The notes under the pieces are model-generated. The model saw nothing but the letters and a program-made list of their open reading frames with translations, was not told the DNA's origin and did no database searches. From positions 2,663,501 to 2,727,500 of the forward strand of contig CANXME010002087.1 in the NCBI GenBank assembly GCA_948144175.1: a DNA stretch of 64,000 nucleotides, read 5' to 3'. Positions 37,878-55,100 of this stretch are shown here, one piece after another. A program made the position numbers and the translations under genes. This stretch comes from Closterium sp. NIES-65. Its lineage: Eukaryota > Streptophyta > Zygnematophyceae > Desmidiales > Closteriaceae. Numbering within the stretch: position 1 is the first letter of the stretch; each line of letters opens with the position of its first letter.

Positions 37878-38454
37878 ACGGTAGCATAGGGTCTGGGTCA
37901 ATTAGCTGTTACGCATTTTCATCATGCTATGCATTCATTTCACTACCTCAGTAGCATATGCATTATATTTATGCATTTTGCGTTTACTTCATCTACGCAT
38001 AACACCATCAGGCATATGCATCACGGAATAAACACTTAGGCGTTCACAGTACATCATTTTGGCAACTCATTAAATACGGTATAGGTTCTAGCAAACTAGG
38101 AAATCAGAAGAAATGTGGTTCGCCGCGTGGTAAATTGACGTGGCAAATACTTAGCAGTCAGTCACTTAGTTACCGACACTAGATTTTTTTCATCCTTTAT
38201 TTTTTCATGTGTAGAGGATGAAAAAAAAATGTACATAACGATTGTAATAGGTTGCTTCGCAACCCAAAAAAAGTACGGTAATAAGACCCGGGTCTTATTA
38301 AAAACGTACATTTGTACCCCTCCCTCCCTCTCCCACCCACATTTTTATTGTGCGACCCTGTCAAGACGCGAGGGCCTTTTATCCTAGGCTTTACAAGAAG
38401 GATATCACTACCGTCAGTATCGAACTTCAAAACATGTACATGCACCGCAACTGG
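37878..38454. other. Intergenic stretch with three palindromes
   Basis: AT-rich and gene-free. It holds three successive inverted repeats: TTTTTTCATCCT / AGGATGAAAAAA arms (about 38185-38226), GGTTGCTTCGCAACC (38250-38264) and a perfect 22-bp palindrome with centre ACCCGGGT (38279-38300). It lies downstream of the glycosyltransferase gene and may include its 3' end region. Confidence 0.6.
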
Positions 38455-38548
38455 TCAGGAAACTGCCCTTTTTTGCGCATGTTTCATGAGATCAGTGTGC
38501 TTCTCATCAGTCATAATTGAGTTGGTGACTCGGTGCCGGATTGCGCCC
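38455..38548 (-). pseudogene. Diverged copy of the last glycosyltransferase exon
   Basis: Reads AIRHRVTNSIMTDEKHTDLM and a few more residues before a stop, against [20 protein letters not shown] in the main exon. About 30 codons stay in frame. It lies just downstream of the main stop and could be a decayed duplicate or an alternative 3' end. Confidence 0.7.
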
Positions 38549-38584
38549 CCAAACCACTAATATAATGTAGAACTTTTTATATGA

Positions 38585-41500
38585 TCAAAACATGTATATG
38601 TAACTTGTCAAGAAACTGCCTAGCAATGCATCTTTGACCAAGTCACTGCGCGTCTCGTCAGTCATGATGGAGTTGAGCCAGCGGTGCCGGATGGCGCGTC
38701 CCGAGTGCCCGGTCAGCTCCCGGAAGGGCACCACTGCCACGTCGGCAACGTGCTGCGGCATAGCGAGCAGCACGTTGAGCCTCGGCTGCTCCCAGTTGCG
38801 CCTCCACAGGTACTGCCTGGCCGGCTCCTCGTGCCAGCTGGCAAGCAGCTGTGGGGGTTGCGGAATGGACGGAGTAATAAACGGGGACAGGGGCAGGGGA
38901 GAGGGGAGAGGGGAGAAGGGAGAGGTGAGACGAGGTACTGCCTCGCCGGCTCCGTGTGCCAGTTGGCAAGCAACTGTGAAGGGGGCGGGAGACAACGGGG
39001 TGGGGGATCGGAGGGAATGGGAGATAATTGAGTGAGGGGATAAGGGGAGGTTGGGAGTCAGTGGCAGGCTCGAGGCTTGTGTGCTCTGCGTCAGGGGGAA
39101 TGTGCAGCCCCAGGGGCAGTGAGGGGGAATGTGCAGCCCCAGGGGCAGTGAGGGGGAATGTGCAGCCCCAGGGGCAGCAGCAGCAGCAGAAAGCAACAGG
39201 GAGCAGCAGCATCTTGAGGCAGTGGGGGGAGCGGCGCCACAGGGTGACCCCCGCGTTGACATACTCCATGCTGCCGTTAAACATCCCCATCAATCAACCC
39301 CCTTCCCCCTCCCCCATCCTCCGCAGTTTGAGACGTATCAAATCTCACCTTGAGGCAGTGCGGGGAGCGCCTCCAGAGTGTGACCCCCGCATTCACATAC
39401 TCCATACTGCCGTTGAACAGCGCCCCCGCCCGCCCCTCCGCCATCCCCGACGCCTCATCATCGTTCCGCGGCGCCACCACACACACCGCCGCCCGGCTCT
39501 CCCCCTCCCCCCCTCCTCCACCTCCCCAATGCCCCCCCTCTCCTGCCTCGCCTTCTCCCCCACCCTGCCCAGTCCCCACAGGTGACGGGGGGCAGGCGGG
39601 AGGTGAGTGCGAGAAGATGGAGGAGGGGGGGCGCGGGAAGCAGGTCTGGTTGGCCAGCGAGATGTTGTAGTCACGGGCGATCCAGTCAAAGTAGTGCTGG
39701 GGGGTGGGTGGAGGAGGGGGAGAAGAGGTGAAAGAGTGAGAGGGGTGGAAAGGTGGGAGAAATGGTGGGAGACAGAATGGAAGACGGAGGAGCTCTGGTA
39801 GAGCATGAGAAGAGTTGGCCCTCCCAGGTCTCATGGGCAGTATGAAGCGGTCCCCTCATGAGTGCACATAGAGGCGTATGAAAGACACATGTCTCCCCTT
39901 CACCCATCCAGCTCAGCACCCATCCAGCCATGCACCCATCCAGCCATGCACCCATCCAGCCATGCACCCATCCAGCCATGCACCCATCCAGCCATGCACC
40001 CATCCAGCCATGCACCCATCCAGCCATGCACCAATCCAGCCATGCACCCATCCAGCCATGCACCCATCCAGCCATGCACCACGAGAAGGGTGAGGTGGTC
40101 GACCCAGCAGTGCACAGAGAGGCGGTGGTTGACCATGCGAAGAATGTTTGAAGCGCCAAAGTGAAACAAGGAAAGAGACTGATGGAAAAAAGCACGGCAA
40201 GGAGAGGTGGAGAGCAGTGTAGGATTGTGTTCGTCCCAGGTTGGTCGTAGAGGCAGAGTGAGTTGGTGCACCCAGCTGGGCACGGTAGAGGCGGTGGTTG
40301 GCCATGCGGATGGACGCGTGTGAGTCGGACAAAGGAAGCGCCTGACTCATGCACGCCTGGGGTGGCAGGCCTCACCGGCAGAGTCAGTCGATCCACCCAG
40401 CTTTTGATTGGCAGGCGGTGGCTGTCCATTCGGAAGTAGGCATCTGAGTCGAGGAAGGCAAGGGAGCGATTGATGCACATGAGGTGGCAGGCAGAAAAAA
40501 CATGTGACTCGCAGGCAGGACTTACAGGCAGAGTCAGTCGATCCACCCAGCTTTGAATGGACAGGCGGTGGTTGTCCATGCGGAAGTAGGCGTCTGAGTC
40601 CAGGAAGAATGCCCACTTGCAGCAGCAAGACAGCTGGCGCTGTAAGAAACGCACCTGGGGCGGGGAGTTAGGGAGGCGGGGTGCGGGGATGGAGGATGAG
40701 AGGATAAGCGCACTTGCAGCAGGAGGACAGCTGGCACTGTAGGAAGCGCACCTGAGGCGTTAGGGAGGAGTGGGTATGGGGATGGGGGATGAGGGAATAA
40801 GCAAGGAGGGGTGCGGGGCGGGGTTTGATTTGAAGAGAATTGGGGGGAGATGGAGAATGGCCGTTGGCAGCAGCAGAAAAGTTGGAGAGAGCAGCGTGGG
40901 GTGAGGAGGGGGGGTGGCAGAATCCAGCATGTGAGGTGCCGCTTGGCATTCAACCAAAAATCATGACATCACGGTGCCGCTTGGCATTCAACCAAAAATC
41001 ATGACATCACTGTGCGGCGCAGGGAAGACGAGGCACCTTGAACCACGAGGCACCTTGAACCATGAGGCACCTTGAACCACGAGGGGTGTCTGCCTGGGTC
41101 CTTGTCCGCCTCGCCCATCTCCACAAAGCGGTACCCGTGGCGCTGCGCATACGCCCTGTGGGTGGCCCATGCAGGAACAGGGAGGGGATGGAGGGGAGCA
41201 GCGGAGCAAGGAGTGAAGCGGGAGCGCACAGCGTGATGGTGAGCGCGGGAAACAAGAGAAATGGTGCCTGCCAGCCAGGGCGAGTGCCTGCCACAGCGAG
41301 TGCACCTGTAAGCCTGCCTGAACGAAGAGTCACATGAGAAAGCATAAGATGCAACAAGACTCTCCCTTGTATTCACGTCGCCCACCTGCTTACTTCGAAT
41401 CCTACCCCCCTCCCCCCCGCTAACTCATTCCCCCAGATTGCTGTCTCATCCCACCTCACCGCTCACTCGCGCCCCACCAGTTACTGAGCTGGGTGGCGAG

Positions 41501-43638
41501 GCAGAAGGGGAGCTCGCGCCCATGCGCTCTGGACGATTCGCTGCTCAACAATCCCCCGCCCCCCTTGCTGACTCACGCCCTTCCTATTGACTCACTCCCT
41601 GCTCACCGGTTGATGAGCTTGGTGGCGAGCCAGTACGGGAACTCGCGCCCATGCGCTTCAAACGAGTCACTGCCAGCAGCTCTTAGCGAGGATGCACTCA
41701 GGCGGCGGTCGTCCGCATACAAGACGCACCCCGGCAGGCCCCTCTCCAGGCGCTGCCTCTGTGGCTCCGCTGCATGGATGAATGGGGTGAATGCATGGGA
41801 TGAGGTGTGGAATGGATGGGATGAGGTGTAGAATGGATGGGATTGTGGGAAGAGAGGTTGAAATGAAGTTGATGATGTGACAGAGAAACAAGGGGGTATA
41901 CATAGTAATGGGGTTGGATGCTAGCCTAAGGTGCCATTATTGGACCCCAACCAAGAGGTTGGGTTGGGAGATTATTGGTGGGGTCCAATAATGTTGGCCA
42001 AGTTGGGGTTGGGCCAACATTATTGGAGGGGGCCAATAATTCTACCCAACCCAACCTTTTGGGGTCCAATAATTGGACCAAGGTTGGGTTCCAACCTACA
42101 AACTGGGTTACCCCTGTTTGTACACCCAAACTAAGTTTGGGTGCTTAACTCTAGCCTAACCTATAGCATATATGCAGGTTACAAGAGAAGAGGGATTCTA
42201 ACACAACCCCTTAACCGGCAGAGATGCGGAAAGGCTTGAGGGAAGCAACCCCTGACTCAAGGCGCGCCTGGGGGAGCGAGGCCGATGAGGCGGAGAAGAG
42301 CAGAGTGCGCAGGGCGAAGAAGGGCTTTGGTAAAGATATCAGCCAAGTTGGCTGCAGCAGCGATCTTGCGAACGGCAATGAGGTTCTGGTGGACAAGGTC
42401 GCGGATGAAGAAATAGCGGAGCTCAATGTGCTTGGAGCGACCATAGAAGACGGGGTCCTGGGTGAGATAGATGGTGCTAGCGTTGTCGCACCAGAGCGTA
42501 GGACAGCGCTGGGGTGCTCCAAGCTCTGCCAGAAGAAAGCAGAGCCAGCGGGACTCTTGCGCGGCCATGGTGCCAGCATAGAGTTCAGCTTCGCAGGAGG
42601 AGAGGGCAATGGCAGAGGAGCGAGTAGAACGTCAGCTGATAAGCCATGCCGAGGTAGTTCTGCAGCGGACCAAGGTCCTTGCACTAGAGACGTTCCTGAA
42701 GTGACCGCTTGACTTGCTCCATGTCGGCTTTGGTGTCAGCGAGCTCATGTCGTCAACGTAGACCGAGATGAAGAAGCGACGGGGGGAAGAGCGGATGAAG
42801 AGGCTGGCATCAAAGTGGGAGGCGGAGAAACCAAGGGACTGGAGAGTGGCAGACAGCTTCGCATGCCATTCTCGTGGTGCCTGCTTCAGGCCATAAATAG
42901 GTCGCCGAAGTTGCCAGACGGTGTTGTCAGGAAAAGCAGCATGAAACCCGGGAGGTCGACGGAGGAAGATGCGCTCGTGCAGTTCGCCTTGCAGGAACGC
43001 GTTGGAGACGTCCATGGAGTCAATCTCCATGTCGTCACGCGCACCAATATCCATGAGGGTGCGTAGGGTGGCCTGCTTGACAGTGGGGGCAAATGTGAAC
43101 CAGAAGTCTTCAGCCCAGGTCTGAGTGAACCCCTTGGCAACGTAGCGGGCTTTGTAGATCGGTTCTTCTCCCAGCAGCTGCTTGACTCGAAAGATCCACT
43201 TGCCCTCGACAAGGTTGGCGTCAGGGGGGAGGGGAACGTCAATGAAGGAGTCGTTGCGGATAAATGCCTCACATTCCAGGAAGATGGCGGCTATCCACTT
43301 GTCAGCGTCAGCGCATGTGATAGCCTCCTGGAAGGTGGAGGGGACGAAGATGGTGGGAGCGGAGATCGCGCTAAGGATTAGAGCGCCGAGGAGGCCAGGG
43401 TAGAGCGTGGTGAGAGAGGGAGTGTGGCGCTGGACCATGGTGAACTCCTCATGGGAATCCTCGAGCTGGTTGAGGGAGGGAGGCGGCGGTGTGCCAAGGA
43501 TGGGATCGAGGGAGCGGGTGTGCATGCGAGGGAGGAGGAAGGGTGAGGAGCGGGCAATTGCCCTCTGCTGCTGCTGCTGCTGGTGCTGCTGGAACTCCTA
43601 CTGCTGTTGCGGCTGCTGCTCCTCCCGATGCTGCTGCC

Positions 43639-43733
<95 letters not shown>

Positions 43734-45900
43734 GGCGGCTGCTGCTGCGGCTGCTGCGGCTGCTGCCCCTGCTGCTGGGACGGAGGAGAAGGAGAGGGGG
43801 GGGGGAGAGGAGGGAGGGGGGGCTGCGGAGTGTGCAGGGGATGCGGGAGCAGTGGGATCGTAGATGTCGGCAGATGAGGGTGGCGGAAGCGGAGTAGGGA
43901 GAGGTGGGAGAAGGGGTGCAGGAGGGAGGAGGGGAGGGAGCACAGTGTCGGTCCAGGTGAGAGGACGTGAAGGAGGAGGGAGGGGGTCTGGGGGTGAAGA
44001 GGAGTAATAGGGGGTGGTTTCGTCAAAGACGACGTCAATGCTGCGGATGAGGCGTCCAGAGGGAGGGTGAAGGAAGAGGTAGCCAGGCGAGTCGCGGTTG
44101 TGCCCGAGGTAGACACACTCGAGGGCGCGAGAAGCGAGCTTGCCGTGGGTGCGATCGGGTGGAGGGATAAGGACATATGCCTTGCAACCCCAGACACGGA
44201 GACCAGCGGCGTCAGGTTTGGTGCCCGACCAAAGCTCCGTGGGGGTGGTGGTGGTATGTTGGGGATGGGAGTGAAGGTTGAGGAGGAGGGCAGCATGGAG
44301 CAAAGCATAGCCCCAGAGGGAAGGGGGGGTTGAGGCGTGAGCGAGGAGACAGCGGGCGATCTTGGTGATTTCGCGAATCCGGCTTTCTGCGACGCCATTC
44401 TGCTGCGGGGAGTGGGGGAGGGTGTGAGTCTGTTGGATGCCATGGGTGGTGCAGTAATGGGAGAGAGTGCGATTGAGGAATTCGCCTCCCCCGTCAGAGT
44501 GTAGGCGGCCGATGGGACGCTTGAAGTGGGCGCGGCATTGCTCGGCCCAGTTGATGATCATGGTCGGCGCCTGGTCTTTCGTGTGGAGGAGAAAAATGGA
44601 GGAGTAGTGGCTGTGGTGGTCGACGAGGACCAGCATGTAGCGATGGCCCTGACGAGAACGAGTGGGGGAGGGTCCCCAGAGGTCCATATGGACGAGGTCA
44701 ATTGGAGCGGGAGTGAAGGATGGGTGGCTGTGGTGGGGGGACTGTTTGAGTTTGCCGTGGATGCACGAGGGGCATGGAGGGGCTGGAGAGGAAGGGAGGG
44801 GGGGGAGAGTGGGAGGGAGGCCGTGAAGGAGGCGAGAGGTGATGGCAGTGCGGAGGGCGGCGAAATTGGGGTGGCCGAGACGGTGGTGGAGCAGTACAGC
44901 GGGGTGGGAGAGATGATCGGAGGTGGAGGGGGTTGGAGTGAGTGAGAGAGGGGGAGGTGACTGCTGCTGCTGCTGTTGCGGCTGCCGCTGCTGCTGCAGC
45001 CCCTGCTGCTGCCTCTGCGGCGGCTGCTGCTGCTGCTGTGGCTGCCCCTGCTGTGGCGGCTGCTGCTGCTGCTGTTGCTGCGGCCCCTGCTGCTGCCTCT
45101 GCGGCGGCGGCTGCTGCTGCTGCTGCTGCTGCGGCCCCTGCTGGTGGCGTGGAGGTGAGGTAGGGGGATGGGGAGGGTTAGTGGAAGTGCCAGCACGGGT
45201 GGTGACATGGCAGAAGGATGGCCAAGGGGTGCGGAGAGTGTAGAGGCGAGTGCGGGGGCAGAGGGGAATGCGTAGAAGGAAGCGACCAGTGGCGGTGTGG
45301 TAGAGGTCACAGTAGGTGGCATTACCTGGATAGACGGCAGTGATACCTGCAGTTTGGATTTCACGGTGGGAGAGGAGGTTGTTTCGGAGGGTGGGGATGT
45401 GGAGACCAGTTACCTTACCAGAGGGGAAGAGTGTGCAGGGGAGAGTGGAGAGGTGTGTGCATGGGATGGTGAAGCTGCTGTCAGCGCCGTGAACGTGCGT
45501 GGGAGGAGAGAGGGGTGTGAGTGTACCAGCATCCTTGAGAGCGGTCTCAGTGGCCCCACTATCGAGGACAAAGTCCAGAGTGGGTGAGGAGGAGGAAGAG
45601 ACGGAGTACTGGAAGGTAGTTTCATTAACGGTGGATGGGTACATGGAAGGAAGTGAGGGTGAGACAGCAATGTTGCCAAGAAAGCTCTCCTGGGTAAGAG
45701 GAGGGGCAGTGCTACTAGGGGGTGGAGCACCCCAAAGGGGGGACGGTGAGGCTTGAGCGGCTATGGCAGCTGTGCCAAAATTCAGCTGCTGCTGCTGCCA
45801 AGGAGGAGGGCTGGGTCCCCACTGGGGTAGGAGTCCAGTTCCCCATGGGTGCGGCTGGGGTTGCGGCTGCTGCTGCTGCTGTGGCTGCTGATGAAACAGC

Positions 45901-45932
<32 letters not shown>

Positions 45933-48900
45933 GTGCTGCTGCAGGAGGTGCTGCTGTTGGAGATTGAGGAGCGGTGTGGGGGGAACAAGGAGGCGGAGGT
46001 GGGCAGGGAGGTAAGCGGGGTTGGTTTGGATGTCGGCAAGGGAGGGACGTGGGGAGATCGTTCCCCACTTGGGAGGAGTGCCAACATTGCCCCGCACGTA
46101 CCAGGCATCATCGAGAGCCTTGAAGCAAGTGCTAGGGGGATGGTTTGTCTGCCCGCAGGGTGTTCCAGCCCGGGGACCATAGCGACGGACATAGGTGCAG
46201 GGCGGAAGAGTGCCAGGACGACTTCCGCGGCCTGCAGAGGCTCCGCCCGAATTAGTGGTGCCATGCTCATCCCCAGTGGCGCCGCCACGGCTGTTTGTGC
46301 TGCCGTTGCCCTGACCGCCACCTCCCTTGCCCCCACCTCCCCCTTTGCCGTTGTTCCGAGCCTGCTTGCGGGGCTGGGTAGCGTTGAGGGAGGAGGAGGA
46401 GGGTTGGGAGGAGGCGAGGTTGACAATGGGGGTGCGAAGTTTGACTTCGGTGTCTATGATCCACTGCTCAACAGAGGCGAGATCGGCCATGGGATTGGCT
46501 TCGGTAAAGGCGTGAAGGCGTGATTCATAGTCTGGGGTGAGGTTAAACAGGAGGCGATGGATTTGGAGGGGTTCGGAGAGGCCAGCCTGGCGGGCTTCGA
46601 GGCGATCAGCTACTTCTCGCATACGTCCGACATAGTCGACCGCTCCGTCACATGTAGCGAGGGTGATTGAAAAGTACTCTTGAAAGAGGATGCCAACCGA
46701 GCTGATGTCGCGGCGCTCGAACATGGCATGGAGTTCGGCCCAAATGATCGAGGCACGGAATTCCCGAGCCTAGAAACGGCGCATAAGGGAGTCAGGGAGA
46801 GCCCCGAGGAGAACGGTGCAGGCGCGGGTGTTAGCAGCTGTCCAGGCGATGAGGCTTGGGGTAAAGGTAGCCAAGTCGTCGTTGTATTTGGCGACGACGG
46901 CAAGATGAGCATTGCGGCCAGCAACTGCCTGGTCATAGGCTTCAACTACTGCATCGTACTCAGCTTTGCGAATAAGGTATGCACGTCGTCGTAAGATGAA
47001 GTCTGCATCAGCGGTGGCTTGGTCGACGGTGAGTTGGAGGTCGGGTTCACGAGGAGAATCGCCAGGAGAGGGAGGGAGAGGAGGGGTCTCGCCGGGGTGG
47101 TCAGGAGCGGTGGGGGGGAGAGCATGGGGACGGCGGAGGATGACGTCAAGGACGCGGTAGGGGGGAATAGGGATGAGCAAGGTGGCGAACACCTGTTCGG
47201 TTCGCCTCGAACGGGTTTCGTTTTTTAGCTCAAATCGTTCGCCGAACAGTGTTCGATGTTCGCCCGAACACGTTCGTGTTCGGGCCGCTGCTGAAATTTG
47301 CCCGCGACGAACACGAACAGTGTTCGAGGTTCGCCCGAACACGCCTCCACAGGCGAACAGCGAACACCTGTCTTTTCCTAAACTGTTCGCCGAACCGAAC
47401 AGTGTTCGGTTCGGCAAAAGAGGGTGTTCGACAAGGGGCGAAGACGAACATGTTCGTGTTCGCCCTTTGCTCATCCCTAGGGGGGAACCCATGTATCGGA
47501 GAGAACTCGACGAATGCTGCCGATGAAGGAGTGCCAGTTGACGGCGGATTTGTCCGCGGCGAGTTGCAGCTTATCGATAGAGGAGGTATCAATAGGAGGA
47601 GGGAGGGGGGAGGGTGTGGCGTGAGCCATGATGGACGGCCGCGGGTGGACCCGCAGTGGTCCCGGAGGGGCGTGAGGAGAGGTGGAGACGAGGCCGCGTA
47701 GGGGAAGGGCGCGGGCGGCAGCGGCTGTTAAGGCCGCGGGACGCTGGCGCGGAGGCGGCGTCGAGGCCGCGGAGGGGGAGGGCGCTGGCAGCGACGGCTG
47801 GCGAGGCCGCGGCGGCGCTGGCGCGGAGGCGGCGGCGAGGCCGCGGAGTGGCGCGGGCGGCGGCTGGCGAGGCCGCGACGAGGCGCGGAGGCGGCGTCGA
47901 GGCCGCGGAGGGGAAGGGCGCGGGCGGGCGGCGGCTGGCGAGGCCGTGGCGGTGCTAGCGCGGAGGCGGCGGCGAGGCCGCGGAGTGGCGCGGGTGGCGG
48001 CTGGCGAGGCCGCGGCGAGGCGCGGAGGCGGCGTCGAGGCCGCGGAGGGGAAGGGCGTGGGCGGCGGCGGCTGGCGAGGCCGCGGCGGCGCTGGCGCGGA
48101 GACGGCGGTGAGGCCGCGGAGTGGCGCGGGTGGCGGCTGGCGAGGCCGCGGCGAGGCACAGAGGCGGCGTTGAGGCCGCGGAGGGGAAGGGCGCAGGCGG
48201 CGGCGGCGGCTGGCGAGGCCGCGGCGGCGCTGGCGCGGAGGCGGCGGCGAGGCCGCGGAGTGGCGCGGGCGGCGGCTGGCGAGGCCGCGGCGAGGCGCGG
48301 AGGCGGCGTTGAGGCCGCGGAGGGGAAGGGCGCGGGCGGCGGCGGCTGGCGAGGCCGCGGAGGGGAAGGGCGCGGGCGGCGGCGGCTGGCGAGGCCGCGG
48401 CGGCGCTGGCGCGGAGGCGGCGTCGAGGCCGCGGAGTGGCGCGGGCGGCGGCTGGCGAGGCCGCGGCGAGGCGCGGAGGCGGCGTCGAGGCCGCGGAGGG
48501 GGAGGGCGCGGGCAGCGGCGGCTGGCGAGGCCGCGGCGGCGCTGGCGCGGAGGTGGCGTCGAGGCCACGGAGTGGCGCGGGCGGCGGCTGGTGAGGCCGC
48601 GGGGAGGCGCGGAGGCGGCGTCGAGGCCGTGGAGGGGAAGAGCGCGGGCGGCAGTGGCTGGGGAGGCCGCGGCGGCGCTGGCGCGGAGGCGGCGTCGAGG
48701 CCGCGGAAGAGAGTGGTGCGGGCTGCAGCGGCTTGGGAGGTCGTGGAGCTGTGGAGGAAAAAGGGCGCTAAAGGGGGAGAGGAAGGCGGGGGGATAGCCG
48801 AGAGGGAAAAAAAAAATTAGGGAAGAGGCTGGGGGTTGCGGCGGCCAGGTGGGCTTTTTTTTTTTTTGAGAGAGGAGTAGGCCTAGGAATGACAGCTCTA

Positions 48901-50903
48901 TACCATGTGGGAAGAGAGGTTGAAATGAAGTTGATGATGTGACAGAGAAACAAGGGGGTATACATAGTAATGGGGTTGGATGCTAGCCTAAGGTGCCATT
49001 ATTGGACTCCAACCAAGAGGTTGGGTTGGGAGATTATTGGTGGGGTCCAATAATGTTGGCCAAGTTGGGGTTGGGCCAACATTATTGGAGGGGGCCAATA
49101 ATTCTACCCAACCCAACCTTTTGGGGTCCAATAATTGGACCAAGGTTGGGTTCCAACCTACAAACTGGGTTACCCCTGTTTGTACACCCAAACTAAGTTT
49201 GGGTGCTTAACTCTAGCCTAACCTATAGCATATATGCAGGTTACAAGAGAAGAGGGATTCTAACAGGGATGAGGTGTAGAATGCATGGGATGAGGTGTAG
49301 AATGGATGGGATGAGGTGTAGAATGGATGGGATGAGGTGTAGAATGCATGGGATGAGGTGTAGAAAGCATGGGATGAGGTGTAGAATGGACGGGATGAGG
49401 TGTAGAATGCATGGGATGAGGTGTAGGATGGATGGGATGAGGTGTACAATGGATGGGATGAGGTGTAGGATGCATGGGATGAGGTGTAGGATGCATGGGA
49501 TGAGGTGTAGAATGGATGGGATGAGGTGTAGGATGCATGGGATGAGGTGTAGGATGCATGGGATGAGGTGTAGAATGGATGGGATGAGGTGTAGAATGCA
49601 TGGGATGAGGTGTAGGATGCATGGGATGAGGTGTAGAATGGATGGGATGAGGTGTAGGATGCATGGGATGAGGTGTAGAATGGATGGGATGAGGTGTAGA
49701 ATGCATGGGATGAGGTGTAGGATGCATGGGATGAGGTGTAGAATGGATGGGATGAGGTGTAGAATGCATGGGATGAGGTGTAGAATGCATGGGATGAGGT
49801 GTAGAATGGATGGTGGACGAGTAATGAGAGGATGCAGAAAGGCGGCAGTCGTTGGCATACAGGACGCACCCCGGCAGGCATCTCTCCAGGCGCTGCCGCT
49901 GTGGCTCCGCTGTTTGGAGAGGTGAGGGCGACACAAAGTGCATAGGGGGAAAATTTGACGGATGCACATTAGGAAGGGGGAGGGGAAAGGGAGTTAGGAT
50001 GGGGAGGGATGGGGTGAGTGCGGGAGATGCTAGGCGGAAGGGGAATGAGCACGGGGAGGAGGAAGGGGGACGCAAGGGGCATGGGGCAATGGGCAGGCGG
50101 CATGGGGTGGCGGCGGCATGGGCATGGGGTGGCGGCATGGGGTGGCGGCATGGGGTGGCGGCATGGGGTGGCGGCATGGGCGGCGGACGGGGAGCAGCGG
50201 GCACGGTGCAGAGGTCAGGGGGCACGGTGCAGAGGTCAGGGGGCACGGTGCAGAGGTCAGGGGGCACGGTGCAGAGGTCAGGGGGCACGGTGCAGAGGTC
50301 AGGGGGCACGGTGCAGAGGTCAGGGGGCACAGCACAAGGGCGGGCGGCAGGCGGCTCACACTTGAGTCGTCGAAGCGCGGCGAGCAGCATGGTGGTGGTG
50401 GCATCGGCGCTCTGCTCCTGCGCCTCCTCCCACCGCCCCACCTCCTCCTGCCCCGTTGCGTGTCGTGGCGGGTGGGGGCATGGGCGGGTTCGTGCATGGA
50501 GAGTGCGTGCATGGGCGGGTGGGTGCATGGGAGAGGCAGGCAAGGGGAATGAGGTGAGTGGGGCACGGGCAGCAGACAGGGCAATGGCAGAGAGGAGAAG
50601 TAAGAAAGAAGGGAGGGCAGGTGTCAAGTGCAGCAGGCGGGGCGCGGTGCCTCAATTCCCATGGCGGGCGTGGGAGGTGAAGGAAAGAGCGCGCAGGGCG
50701 GAGAGGAGTACAGGGCGGTGGACAGGGGTTGGTGCAGGAATGAGGGCGGGCGGACGACAGGGCGCGGGACATGCGTAGAGAGGGACTCTTACGTAGGGGC
50801 GGGGGGGAAGGAAGCGGAGGAGCGCGGAGAGAAGCGCGAGCAGGGCGAGCAGCGGCAGCGCGGAGTCGAGGAATCCGCGCAGGAACGCGGCGGCGCCGCG
50901 CAT
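38585..50903 (-). CDS. Golgi-type glycosyltransferase (GT34-like), seven exons
   Basis: Predicted exons: 50903-50793, 50447-50360, 41769-41607, 41155-41071, 40654-40526, 39696-39349 and 38848-38585. All have GT..AG borders and agreeing phases, giving 395 residues. Exon 1 ([20 protein letters not shown]...) is a signal anchor with a hydrophobic segment at about residues 15-31, as in type II Golgi enzymes. Exons 3-5 carry [24 protein letters not shown] and [13 protein letters not shown]; this is the layout of GMA12/MNN10-type (GT34) galactosyl/xylosyltransferases, with DSD as the metal-binding DxD. Exon 6 holds [13 protein letters not shown]. The last exon ends SYIYMF. Known members decorate cell-wall polysaccharides or glycoproteins; the exact substrate is not readable. 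Exon 6 contains a Pro/Gly-rich insert that could hide an intron. Intron 2 (8.6 kb) contains copia G. Confidence 0.72.
38929..39300 (-). pseudogene. Partial duplicate copies of glycosyltransferase exons 6 and 7
   Basis: 39217-39293 repeats [20 protein letters not shown] from exon 6. 38929-38974 repeats the start of exon 7 ([14 protein letters not shown] against [14 protein letters not shown]), including its acceptor. Between them lies a 29-bp unit repeated three times (39093-39180). Both copies sit inside intron 6. Confidence 0.7.
39895..40085. repeat. 16-bp minisatellite in glycosyltransferase intron 5
   Basis: About eleven copies of CCATCCAGCCATGCAC. The open frames here ([12 protein letters not shown] repeats) follow from the repeat and are not genes. 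Confidence 0.9.
40085..40470 (-). pseudogene. Three decayed copies of glycosyltransferase exon 5
   Basis: 40376-40465 is the best ([20 protein letters not shown]..., with a GTGAGG donor and DSD kept). 40255-40330 and 40085-40140 are progressively shorter and more diverged (NHRLY..., [13 protein letters not shown]). Confidence 0.75.
40702..40752 (-). pseudogene. Copy of the 5' part of glycosyltransferase exon 5
   Basis: Repeats the acceptor and the first 15 codons ([15 protein letters not shown] against [15 protein letters not shown]), then diverges. It lies upstream of the main exon 5. Confidence 0.7.
40938..41013. repeat. 35-bp direct repeat, two copies
   Basis: GCCGCTTGGCATTCAACCAA... followed by AAATCATGACATCAC occurs twice in tandem about 40 bp apart, in intron 4 of the glycosyltransferase gene. 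Confidence 0.85.
41487..41548 (-). pseudogene. Copy of the 3' part of glycosyltransferase exon 3
   Basis: Reads [18 protein letters not shown] against [18 protein letters not shown] in the main exon; the splice donor is not conserved. Confidence 0.65.
41780..41843. repeat. 21-bp minisatellite, short left part
   Basis: Three units of GGGATGAGGTGTAGAATGGAT. The array continues at 49266 on the far side of copia G, which inserted into it. Confidence 0.88.
41844..42203 (-). repeat. 3' LTR of copia G
   Basis: 360 bp, TGTGGGAAG ... TTCTAACA. The middle is strongly palindromic: CCAATAATGTTGGCC and GGCCAACATTATTGG arms 12 bp apart, and GGTCCAATAATTGGACC. Confidence 0.93.
42257..43525 (-). pseudogene. 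RT and RNase H region of copia G (broken)
   Basis: RT at 42700-43400 ([59 protein letters not shown]). RNase H at 42257-42640 ([37 protein letters not shown]). Confidence 0.88.
43449..46724 (-). CDS. gag-protease-integrase portion of copia G
   Basis: One frame of 1091 codons. In order: gag core; variant zinc knuckle near residues 178-203 ([20 protein letters not shown], then PPSTC; C-X13-C-X4-H-X4-C); polyQ segments; protease [11 protein letters not shown] near residue 385; pre-integrase HHRLGHPNF ... CPSCIHGK; integrase core ([48 protein letters not shown]); linker with a poly-Ala run from a CAG/CTG tract. Described as an element part. Confidence 0.9.
43565..43785. repeat. CTG/CAG trinucleotide-rich tract
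   Basis: Nearly pure CTG repeats on the plus strand, inside the integrase-RT linker of copia G. Related shorter CTG tracts occur at 44960-45145 and 45860-45960. They encode poly-Ala or poly-Gln depending on frame. Confidence 0.9.
46730..47629 (-). pseudogene. gag N-terminal region of copia G, split by a MITE
   Basis: The start context ATG is at 47629. Coding-like segments 47488-47629 and 46730-47160 lie either side of the MITE at 47168-47479. The second has gag-core features ([33 protein letters not shown]). Confidence 0.8.
47168..47479. mobile_element. hAT-type MITE nested in copia G
   Basis: 312 bp with terminal inverted repeats TAGGGATGAGCAA / TTGCTCATCCCTA and a perfect 8-bp target duplication GGGGGGAA (47160-47167 and 47480-47487), which is the hAT signature. 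The interior is made of repeated GTTCG / CGAAC motifs (GTTCGCCGAACAGTGTTCG and similar), so the single strand can fold extensively. No coding capacity. Confidence 0.92.
47680..48720 (-). repeat. 137-bp tandem repeat in the leader of copia G
   Basis: GC-rich units recur at a period of about 137 bp. The marker GGAGGCGGCG occurs at 47751, 47888, 48024, 48160 and 48299. Shorter internal motifs are GGCTGGCGAGGCCGCGG. The many long open frames on both strands are compositional. Confidence 0.88.
48906..49265 (-). repeat. 5' LTR of copia G
   Basis: 360 bp, identical to the 3' LTR except at one base. Confidence 0.93.
49266..49816. repeat. 21-bp minisatellite, main array
   Basis: About 26 units of GGGATGAGGTGTAGAATGSAT within glycosyltransferase intron 2. 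Open frames such as [14 protein letters not shown] repeats are a by-product. The array is split by copia G. Confidence 0.92.
49830..49909 (-). pseudogene. Truncated upstream copy of glycosyltransferase exon 3
   Basis: Same acceptor (CCAAACAG) and coding start as the main exon 3 ([20 protein letters not shown] against ...[12 protein letters not shown]), but it runs into the minisatellite and lacks the second half. Main exon 3 at 41769 is complete. Confidence 0.75.
50095..50330. repeat. Two adjoining minisatellites in intron 2
   Basis: 15-bp GCATGGGGTGGCGGC units (50100-50180), followed by seven 21-bp GGCACGGTGCAGAGGTCAGGG units (50199-50330). Confidence 0.9.
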
Positions 50904-52144: not shown

Positions 52145-55100
52145 TTGGAGAGTTCCTTAGGCAACGCATCTTGCGAGCGCCGATTGCATGCGGGCCGTGG
52201 CCGGCCGACAATGGCGATGCTAGAGAAGGCGAGCCCGGCAGAGGGAGTGAGCGCTTCCGCCAGGTCTTCCCCCGGGACTTCCGCCGTCCTTCCGCCGTCG
52301 GCCCTTCCGTCGGTTCTTCCGCCATCGATCGTTCCGCAGTACGAGCGACTGTTTTTTGCGTCGAGGGCTTTAGGCGAGGATGAGGGGACAGCGCGGGTTT
52401 TAGGCGGAGCGGACGGCACAGCGCAGGTTTTAGGCGGAGCGGACGGGACAGCGCGGGATTCAATAGGAGCTGACGAGACAGCTCGGGATTTAGGAAGAGC
52501 GGACGGAACAGCGCGGGTTTTAGCCGAGCGGAAAGGGGCAGCGAGGGGTTTAACGGGCGACGACATCGATCAGCTTGTAGTGCAGAACGAAGCCGCCTTG
52601 TCACGCGCTGATGCTGATCGGATCGCCACAGTCAGTGAACGCGCTGCGGTCAATGAACGCGCTACAGCCGACCTGGGCGCTACAGCCGATCGGGCTGCTA
52701 CAGCCTCTCACGACGACGACAATTTAGCTGGGCGGGAAGCTACAGTAATGCACCGCGATGCTGCTGCAGCGAAAGGAGCAGATAGTAGTCGTGAAGATGC
52801 TGTCACGAGGGATGCCATTGTCGAAGGTGAGACTACCGTGACGCACGTTGTCACTGAGGCGCGCGGAGATGCCCGTACAATAGCGAGAATGCCACTAACG
52901 AGTCCGATCATTGACTTGACGCTAGAGGGGAGCGACACGTCTGACGTAGAGCATGCACGGGCTGACGTTAGCGCCGCCAGAGCTGACTTGGAGAACACTG
53001 GGGCTGACGTAAGCGATACAAGGACGGGCGTGGAGGAGTCTAGAGTCCCCATGAACATGGAAAGTACAAGGGCTGATGGCGTGGAGCAGTCAACGGCTGA
53101 CGTGGAAACGACATCGGCTGACGTGGAACAGTCAACGGCGGACGTGGAAGCGAAGAGAGCCAAGGTGGACGAGGCAAGGACAGACGAGCAGGCCAGAGGG
53201 GGCGGGGAGGCTATGAGTGGTGTAGGGGCGGAGACACGGGATGAGCGCGAGGAGCGAGCAGGTGAGGCGACGGCAGGCAAGACAACGTCAGGTGGTGAAA
53301 TGGCAATGGGGGCTGCGGAGTACGCTGGGGCGAGGGAAGGGGAGAGGGGAGCGGATGGGGCGGAGAAGATTGGCAAAGGGAGGAGAAAGAAAGGACGCCG
53401 AGAGGGGAGAGGAGAGGAGGAGGGGACGATGACAGTGGCAGGCGAGGGACAGGCGGAGGCGTTGGAGGGCGGGCAGAATGAAAACCAGGAGGACGGGCAG
53501 GAGAGGAAAAAGAAAAGGAAGAAGAAGTGGAAGGGCAAGGGAGCAGAAGGAGCAACGGGCGATGGCGCAGCAGCGAATCAACTGCAGGGCGACCAGTCGG
53601 AACCCCAAGAGAAGGCCCAGTCAGAGCCTCAGTGGAAATCGGAAGCAGCAGGCGAGGCAGGGGGGGACGCAGGCGGGGAGAGCGTGGAGATGCGGCGGCT
53701 GCTACGGCTGCCACGTTACTTCACACCGGCCGAGGGGCAGCACCAGTGCTACCTCTGTGGCCTCGTGCTCGCCGGGCCCCTTCCCCACGTCTGCCAGGGC
53801 GTGCAGCAGGGGGACGGGGGTGAAGGGGGAACTGGGGGAAGGGCGGGGGAGGGCGAGGGCGAGGGGAGGGTGTGCTGCGTGTGTGGGGGGTTGGGGCATT
53901 CGGAGCGGCGGTGCCCCGAGAGGGTGATGTGTGTGCGCTGTGGGCAGCCGGGCCACGTGGTCAGGCACTGCCCCTCCCGCACGTGGACCCGGGCGCAGGG
54001 GGCGGCTGGTGATGGCGGGCGCAAGGGCGCTCACGGTGGCCGTGGTGCTGCTGGTGGTGGGGGTGGGGATAGTACCGTTGCTGCTACTGGCGATGGTGGC
54101 ACTGCTGCTGCGGGCGGAGAGAAAAAGGCTGAGGTTGATGAGGGGGCGAAGGCGGAGGGGGAGGGGGCGCAGAGGGGAGGGAGGGAAGGGGGGGCAGCGG
54201 AGTGCATGCGGTGTGGTGGGGAGGGGCACGTGTTTGGGGAGTGCTGGCAGCCGTATGACCCCGCTGACCTGGCGAGGGTGCAGTGCCACGTGTGCCTGCA
54301 GTGGGGCCACCTGGCGTGCGCTGACCTGGCAGACCCGCCGCCCAAGCCGTCGTGCTGCTGCTGTGGCGCCAGGGGACACCACGGCGAGGTGAGCGGCAGC
54401 ATGAAGGTGCGGGGAGAGGTGGGGGGGGGGGGGGGGGGGGGGGGGGGGAGAGGTTAGGTGGGGGGCAGCTTGGGTGAGAGGTGGGGGGCAGCAAGGGGGG
54501 GTGAGAGGTGGGGGGTAGCTTGGGGGGGTGAGAGGTGGGGGGGAGCAAGGGGGGGTGAGAGGTAGGGGGGAGCAAGGGGGGGTGAGAGGTGGGGGGTAGC
54601 TTGGGGGGGTGAGAGGTGGGGGGTGAGAGGTGGGGGGTAGCAGGGAGAGGGCGGTGGAGGGAGGTAGAAAGGGTTGCAGGCCGGCAAGAGTCCACCTGCA
54701 CAACCATCCCTGGTTCCCTGCGCTCTTCGCATTCCGTCTCCTTCAATCCGCTTCCACCTCACCGTTTTTCCTACCACCAAACGAACTAATGAAAAAGAGG
54801 AAGGGCTGAGGGGCCCTTATATAGCTAGGGAATAGAGGGAAGAGGGCCGAGGGAAGAGGCCAGAGGCTAAGTCCTCTCTCTCTCGCTCTCCCGAACGCCG
54901 TTTTTCCTCGCCTCATCGGTTTCTCTTGTTTCCCATCTCCTCTTGTCTTTCCCCATTCCTTCTTTCACCACATGAATCCACCTCATAAGTCTGCTCCATC
55001 CTCCTCTTTGCTTTTCTCCCCTCACTTTACAGCAGCAACCACTCCCTCACACCTCCCTCCCCCTGCTCTGCGCACACCCTACCCCCTCCTCTCCCCCTTA

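What the first reader, a model, noticed from the sequence alone, without database searches (positions are those of the whole stretch)
38455..49909. Exon-by-exon duplication and decay inside one glycosyltransferase gene
Four of the seven exons of the phase-consistent gene (3, 5, 6 and 7) have one to four partial copies lying next to them in the introns: exon 3 twice, exon 5 four times in graded decay, exon 6 once, exon 7 at its start and at its end. The end of exon 4 carries a short triplicated TGGTTCAAG tail. Copies often keep splice signals (a GTGAGG donor at 40371-40375, an acceptor at 38975). Neighbouring introns hold 15-, 16-, 18-, 21-, 29- and 35-bp tandem repeats. This looks like repeated local segmental duplication confined to one locus, and some copies could still be used as alternative exons.
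Basis: partly seen in the sequence, partly recalled or inferred. Interest (0 to 1): 0.75.

Follow-up and report, generated by a model that had tools for sequence, protein, structure and literature searches.

The report
Exon-edge duplications beside a sugar-transferase gene
In what is probably a desmid alga, exons of a sugar-transferase gene have had their edges, splice site included, copied next to themselves again and again; the same habit appears in other genes of this genome, and the copies look like by-products rather than extra working exons.

Summary
On the minus strand, 38585-50903, lies a phase-consistent 7-exon gene for a 395-aa GT34-like glycosyltransferase. Exons 3, 5, 6 and 7 have nine partial copies nearby; exon 4 ends in a 17-bp triplication. 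All nine obey one rule: a copied exon start lies upstream of its exon, a copied exon end downstream. Several units abut head to tail. These are tandem duplications straddling a splice site (or ending at the stop codon), which leave the original exon intact.

"Confined to one locus" is wrong: paralogues, chaperonin, proteasome and tRNA-synthetase genes of the same 874-Mb genome show the pattern; 12 light-harvesting loci do not. Unit number differs between related contigs in two cases. Use as alternative exons is not supported: one of eight alternative splices built keeps the frame, and a homologous contig breaks it.

A surprise: many copy-exon differences are silent, more than a simply decaying copy allows, though the few recent changes look unconstrained. 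Exchange between already diverged gene copies would explain this, but is not shown.

The parts
50793..50903 (-). Exon 1: ATG, hydrophobic signal-anchor-like stretch, ends TAC|GTAAGA
   Evidence: phase 0; the start codon is inferred
50360..50447 (-). Exon 2, ends T|GTGAGC (phase 1)
41607..41769 (-). Exon 3
   Evidence: identical on C1512 (0/163)
41071..41155 (-). Exon 4, ends TGGTTCAAG|GTGCC
40526..40654 (-). Exon 5, carries the DSD (DXD-like) motif
   Evidence: Pfam PF05637 match
39349..39696 (-). Exon 6
38585..38848 (-). Exon 7 with TGA stop
49828..49918 (-). Copy of acceptor + start of exon 3, upstream of it
   Evidence: 79/91 identical
41430..41544 (-). Copy of end of exon 3 + donor region, downstream; 15 bp from its parent unit
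   Evidence: 85/117
41028..41084 (-). 17-bp unit in 3.4 copies carrying the exon 4 donor; two units fewer on C1512
40708..40800 (-). Copy of acceptor + start of exon 5, upstream, directly abutting its parent unit
   Evidence: 79/98, gap 0
40364..40457 (-). Copy 1 of end of exon 5 + donor GTGAGG, downstream
   Evidence: 83/94
40252..40370 (-). Copy 2 of end of exon 5; its unit lies 6 bp from the unit of copy 1; donor GT lost
   Evidence: 83/119 to copy 1; donor site
40087..40139 (-). Copy 3 of end of exon 5, most decayed; a GT (GTGGTG) remains at the donor place, 40082
   Evidence: 40/53 to exon 5; donor site
39210..39283 (-). Copy of end of exon 6, downstream; donor lost (AAG|ATG)
   Evidence: 64/74; sequence
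38933..39051 (-). Copy of intron 6 end + acceptor + start of exon 7, upstream; 6 bp from its parent unit
   Evidence: 89/126
38427..38546 (-). Copy of the end of exon 7 to the stop codon, downstream
   Evidence: 86/123
41844..49265 (-). LTR retrotransposon (called Copia-type from recalled motifs in the reading) inserted in the 21-bp repeat array of intron 2
   Evidence: LTR pair 99.7%, target-site repeat GGGAT; same insertion on C1512

Best explanation
Short tandem duplications (about 95-275 bp between copies in the cases measured) keep arising in genes of this genome. Those seen here straddle a splice site: part of an exon, the splice site and some intron are repeated head to tail. Such an event is tolerated because the intact exon with its nearest splice site remains, so start-copies are left upstream and end-copies downstream. 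Shown: the copies, the orientation rule, abutting units, recurrence in paralogues and unrelated genes, and unit-number differences between related contigs. Inferred: unequal exchange or replication slippage makes them; selection removes duplications inside exons; the copies are not coding exons today. Also inferred: several copies came from, or exchanged with, already diverged functional versions of the gene, because many of their differences are silent.
For: Orientation rule: 9 of 9 copies in the window and 21 of 21 classifiable, non-overlapping neighbour pairs in three other families (6 chaperonin, 2 proteasome, 13 tRNA synthetase; homologous contigs counted separately, and some tRNA-synthetase pairs compare two copies with each other; 11 of 32 pairs set aside). 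Abutment: gaps of 0, 6, 6 and 15 bp between units. Recurrence: exon 6 end copies in three paralogue lineages are closest to their own exon (64, 69 and 64 of 75 identical, against at most 51 to an exon of another gene tested). Unit number: 17-bp unit 3 against 1; exon 6 end units 2 on C573, 3 on C1894. Coding use: the 395-aa frame is intact on both homologues while alternatives break. Current rate: copies differ between homologues by 12/631, other introns 44/2298, exons 10/1130; the two differences between C1052 and C1420 both lie in the copy and change the amino acid. Random tandem duplications of 120 bp would fall 41% on exon boundaries and 33% in introns only, with near-equal detectability (58/60 and 60/60), so selection on random events nearly suffices.
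Against: Simple decay of a neutral copy is rejected: in six window copies 29 silent and 22 amino-acid-changing differences, where a neutral copy plus a constrained exon gives 34.9 +/- 3.2 changing ones (0 of 1000 simulations as low); six paralogue pairs 30 and 32 against 42.8 (P 0.006); three chaperonin pairs 38 and 14 against 31.5 (0 of 1000; found at protein level). Exon parts of six copies have no gap columns in 387 aligned positions, intron parts 25 beside 188 aligned. No intron-only duplication at 60-1000 bp offset was found in 38.3-41.8 kb, a mild excess at boundaries (roughly 1-2% under random placement, my arithmetic). C965 carries an apparently whole exon-5-like copy upstream, which the boundary model does not predict. 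The exon/copy rate contrast is not significant (Fisher P 0.075). No transcripts were available.
Confidence: 0.68

Rival explanations
1. The copies are functional alternative exon ends or starts, kept by selection on the protein.
For: Differences between copy and exon are strongly silent for the exon 6 copy (8 silent, 1 changing) and chaperonins C1052 (14 and 1) and C43 (21 and 12). Copy 1 of exon 5 keeps a donor and adds 50 codons in frame in the window; copy 1 and the exon 6 copy have 0 changes between homologues (0/82, 0/74).
Against: Seven of eight alternative splices built in the window break the frame; the eighth is out of frame on C1512 (+149 nt). The exon 6 copy and exon 5 copy 2 have lost the donor GT. 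Pooled copies change at the intron rate. The two differences between C1052 and C1420 both lie in the copy and change the amino acid.
Confidence: 0.12
2. Copies decay neutrally from birth, as pseudo-exons, without any later exchange (the plain form of the reader's graded decay).
For: Outer exon 5 copies and the exon 7 end copy carry indels; the exon 3 end copy shows 2 silent and 7 changing differences; the pooled short-term rate equals introns.
Against: Fewer amino-acid-changing differences than expected in all three sets tested, and no indels in six exon parts.
Confidence: 0.12
3. Fragments of separate paralogous genes inserted or misassembled here.
For: The genome holds many related genes and near-duplicate contigs.
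Against: Each copy sits beside its own exon in the same orientation; for exon 6 and the first exon 5 copy, the ones compared, the copy is closer to its own exon than to the paralogues tested. The structure recurs on C1512 and C1174.
Confidence: 0.03

Closest known systems
[quoted passage not shown] Gao and Lynch 2009, not held, seen only as cited; potato RdRp case PMC4974935 and review PMC3443670, passages seen)
   Same: Short tandem duplications inside genes that copy exon sequence together with splice sites; the potato case also duplicates an upstream intron-exon structure.
   Different: There the duplication makes a new used intron or changes the product; here the gene can be read without any new intron and the copies stay in the introns, several per gene and in several genes.
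Novel intron positions by tandem duplication in Drosophila (PMC2891723, passages seen)
   Same: Partial tandem duplication of exon sequence with splice motifs.
   Different: Five of 31 novel intron positions there are ascribed to it, each with a new intron; here copies gather on both sides of one exon.
Tandem duplicated exons with mutually exclusive splicing (PMC9741552, search listing and start of abstract only)
   Same: Exon-like copies next to the exon.
   Different: Those are exons used alternatively; here the copies are partial, mostly out of frame and cover only one splice site.
Copy-number variation in Closterium genomes (PMC10407611, abstract, passages and section 7 seen)
   Same: Probably the same organism or a close relative (NIES-65 assembly 876 Mb, here 874 Mb) with pervasive gene duplication.
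   Different: Concerns whole genes; the parts I read do not describe exon-edge duplications.

Membership tests
Glycosyltransferase family GT34 | Pfam PF05637 above its gathering score | tested here: met
   29.0 bits against 23, E 1.2e-6, but only profile positions 33-96 of 238
Glycosyltransferase family GT34 | DXD-type acidic motif (recalled as typical of this fold) | tested here: met
   DSD in exon 5, invariant in 4 of 4 aligned sequences
Glycosyltransferase family GT34 | Similarity to a solved relative over the domain | tested here: inconclusive
   Best structure is the PBCV-1 glycosyltransferase 2p6w, E 0.044 and 0.0059 with the profile
Glycosyltransferase family GT34 | Sugar-transfer activity | not testable with these tools
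   no assay
[quoted passage not shown]
[quoted passage not shown]
   no transcripts; no new intron is needed to read the gene
Alternative (mutually exclusive) tandem exons | Copies are complete exons with both splice sites | tested here: not met
   9 of 9 window copies are partial and cover only one exon edge
Alternative (mutually exclusive) tandem exons | Copies keep the reading frame when used | tested here: not met
   7 of 8 alternatives built break it in the window, the eighth on C1512; tested as extended exons, not as cassettes

The most novel reading that the evidence does not exclude
Exon-edge tandem duplications form a genome-wide, long-lived reservoir: units beside an exon are exchanged back into the exon edge, so that they pass repeatedly through the filter of protein function and diverge mainly at silent sites. 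Exon edges in this alga would then evolve in concert with intronic spare copies.
Probability: 0.15. Interest if true: 0.8.

Novelty: new variant of a known kind. Interest (0 to 1): 0.52.

Why it matters
Tandem duplication over splice sites is a proposed source of new introns and alternative exons, studied largely from small numbers of cases in the passages I saw. A genome that carries several such events in one gene and in several gene families, with different degrees of divergence and unit-number differences between related contigs, would let one measure how often they arise, which survive, and whether copies feed back into the exon. It also warns that gene models and transcript alignments in such genomes can be misled by partial exon copies.

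Tried and rejected
Chance similarity: rejected by E-values and by the ordered, abutting units. Misassembly: unlikely, since copies are some 11-30% diverged and recur on C1512. Alternative splicing: disfavoured by frame tests; cassette use was not tested. A shared ancestral exon 6 copy in all paralogues: DNA identity favours separate events, but the C573 and C1358 copies share an N-to-K change (peptides), so an old copy later homogenised by its own exon is not excluded there. An identity table with end gaps free was misleading and was replaced. In one search five of eleven alignments had overlapping ranges or matched a stretch to itself; redid them, except the 17-bp unit. One search misplaced the exon 5 start copy by one base; one search replaces it. 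One search took exon 2 from 50441 instead of 50447 and exon 1 only to 50865. One search stopped with an error on C1512 (stretch begins after the ATG, and one changed base in a search motif); redid it with hand-set sites. Homologue pairs of the chaperonin loci were too alike for a proper test of constraint. A first reading frame of the light-harvesting loci was on the wrong strand; redid it. Papers: searches; among the titles and abstract starts listed I saw none that describes this pattern in an alga; I did not read most of them. Searches are limited to an open-licence library.
Full report
WHAT IS THERE. The gene lies on the minus strand. Seven exons with GT-AG ends and matching phases give a 395-aa protein: 50903-50793, 50447-50360, 41769-41607, 41155-41071, 40654-40526, 39696-39349, 38848-38585. 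The frame is equally intact on the homologous contig C1512 (395 aa counting the 13 N-terminal residues outside the fetched stretch). The protein matches Pfam GT34 over 63 residues (29.0 bits, cut-off 23); the best solved relative is the PBCV-1 glycosyltransferase, weakly. It is therefore a distant GT34-like enzyme; its activity is unknown.

THE COPIES. Nine partial exon copies and one short 17-bp array were confirmed (listed under parts). With gapped alignment the similar region crosses the splice site into the intron, and units lie head to tail: gap 0 bp (exon 5 start), 6 bp (exon 7 start), 6 bp (exon 5 copies 1 and 2), 15 bp (exon 3 end). The others have 38-72 bp between, and the exon 3 start copy is separated by a 21-bp repeat array into which a retrotransposon has since inserted. 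In all nine the copied exon start is upstream and the copied exon end downstream. A tandem duplication across a splice site gives exactly this and leaves one complete exon in place.

NOT ONE LOCUS. The window is part of contig C1789 of an 874-Mb, 2400-contig genome. Thirteen stretches with related genes were examined. On C1669 one exon 5 has four partial start-copies upstream and five end-copies downstream, the latter with 125-bp period. C573 has one and C1894 two extra exon 6 end units (145-bp period). C1358 has one. C965 has an apparently whole exon-5-like copy upstream, an exception to 'partial'. Three show little: the second C729 gene and C2293 only arrays with periods near 60 bp, C1976 one short pair. 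Among eight stretches found with the GT34 profile, two have no local repeat at all; the rest were not sorted by exon. Outside the family, profile-search tables show neighbouring overlapping exon matches: 32 pairs in 93 chaperonin, 44 proteasome and 52 tRNA-synthetase rows. Twenty-one are non-overlapping and classifiable, and all 21 obey the rule; 11 were set aside (7 share both ends, 2 neither, 2 overlap, of which one obeys and one does not). Homologous contigs are counted separately, so the number of independent loci is smaller. DNA of four examples confirms it: chaperonin C1626 (91%), C43 (82%), C1052 (91%), proteasome C2400 (95%). Control: 0 of 12 light-harvesting loci (the 12 cut out of 146 matches) have a local repeat touching the coding match, 6 of 12 have one in the flanks; these matches sit in one open frame each and several are near-identical pairs, so they are an easy control.

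AGE AND TURNOVER. C1174 repeats the locus almost exactly (no mismatches, 15 gaps in 16.5 kb), possibly assembly redundancy. C1512 differs by about 2% and shares the retrotransposon insertion. It lacks two of the 17-bp units of exon 4.

ARE COPIES USED? Eight alternative splices using surviving copy sites were built as extended exons (seven, one). Seven shift the frame or stop early. The eighth, the donor of exon 5 copy 1, adds 50 codons in frame in the window; on C1512 the added stretch is 149 nt and ends in a frameshift, and the three other splices tried there also fail. Cassette use and the exon 3 start copy were not built. Between the homologues, exons differ by 10/1130, copies 12/631, other introns 44/2298: copies match introns (Fisher P 1.0); exons against introns P 0.028, exons against copies P 0.075. 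Copy 1 and the exon 6 copy show no change. Between C1052 and C1420 the only two differences in 701 bp lie in the copy and both alter the amino acid. So there is little sign of coding constraint now, with small numbers.

THE ODD RESULT. If a copy is neutral from birth, most of its differences from the exon should change the amino acid. They do not. Simulations with the observed transition bias (23:27 in non-exonic sequence) and an exon branch under constraint (ratio 0.39 for GT34, my arithmetic from the 5 silent and 5 changing differences; 0.05 for chaperonins, assumed) expect 34.9 changing differences in six window copies; 22 were seen, with 29 silent (none of 1000 simulations as low). Six GT34-paralogue pairs: 32 against 42.8 (P 0.006). 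Three chaperonin pairs: 14 against 31.5; those were found at protein level, which favours conserved copies. One search leaves out C1894, the C573 exon 5 copy, C1669 copies other than three, the proteasome case and the frame-broken window copies (exon 5 copies 2 and 3, exon 7 end), and compares only stretches readable in frame. The effect is concentrated in the exon 6 copy (8 silent, 1 changing), C1052 (14, 1) and C43 (21, 12); exon 3 end (2, 7) shows none. Exon parts of the six copies have no gap columns in 387 positions, intron parts 25 beside 188; the introns are low-complexity and may be more prone to indels. Either the copies were made from diverged but working versions of the gene, or units are exchanged back into the exon, or they were used until recently. 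Pervasive gene duplication is reported for the probable organism (PMC10407611), which makes exchange between diverged copies plausible; none of the three is shown.

SELECTION OR TARGETING? In a shortened ancestral-like gene random 120-bp duplications fall 41% on exon boundaries, 33% in introns only, 19% inside exons, with near-equal detectability. No intron-only pair at 60-1000 bp offset was found in the window gene, a mild excess at boundaries; but shorter-period intron repeats (16, 29, 38 bp) are present. Selection on random events is nearly enough.

ORGANISM. A light-harvesting protein is closest to land-plant LHCII among solved structures once the two long 9vfj chains at the top are set aside (which plants the next chains come from is recalled). 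Assembly size fits Closterium NIES-65 (876 Mb; PMC10407611 Table 1); the paper says the analysed samples were haploid, so C1512 would be a segmental duplicate rather than an allele. This is an inference.

Noticed in passing
41844-49265: Young LTR retrotransposon (LTRs 99.7% identical, target repeat GGGAT) in intron 2, inserted into a 21-bp repeat array that flanked the exon 3 start copy; its leader holds a long GC-rich tandem array (47689-48707).
   Followed up: partly
47168-47479: A 312-bp element with terminal inverted repeats TAGGGATGAGCAA and an 8-bp target repeat GGGGGGAA (hAT-like, from recall) nested in the retrotransposon; absent from C1512, which shows the empty site.
   Followed up: yes
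39893-40080: The stretch with the 16-bp minisatellite of intron 5 (CACCCATCCAGCCATG) accounts for 119 of the 122 matches of the locus in its genome, often clustered, so it is a widespread repeat.
   Followed up: no
41912-42096: Both LTRs carry a long imperfect inverted repeat (about 74% over 192 columns), which struck me as unusual for an LTR.
   Followed up: no
52200-54200: Plus-strand open frame with CCHC zinc-knuckle-like motifs next to the gene (motif by eye, from the DNA).
   Followed up: no
L066 (C2400:3667750-3668300): The proteasome-like exon whose end is duplicated carries a stop codon in the first unit but not in the second, so this gene may be broken or may use the second unit.
   Followed up: no
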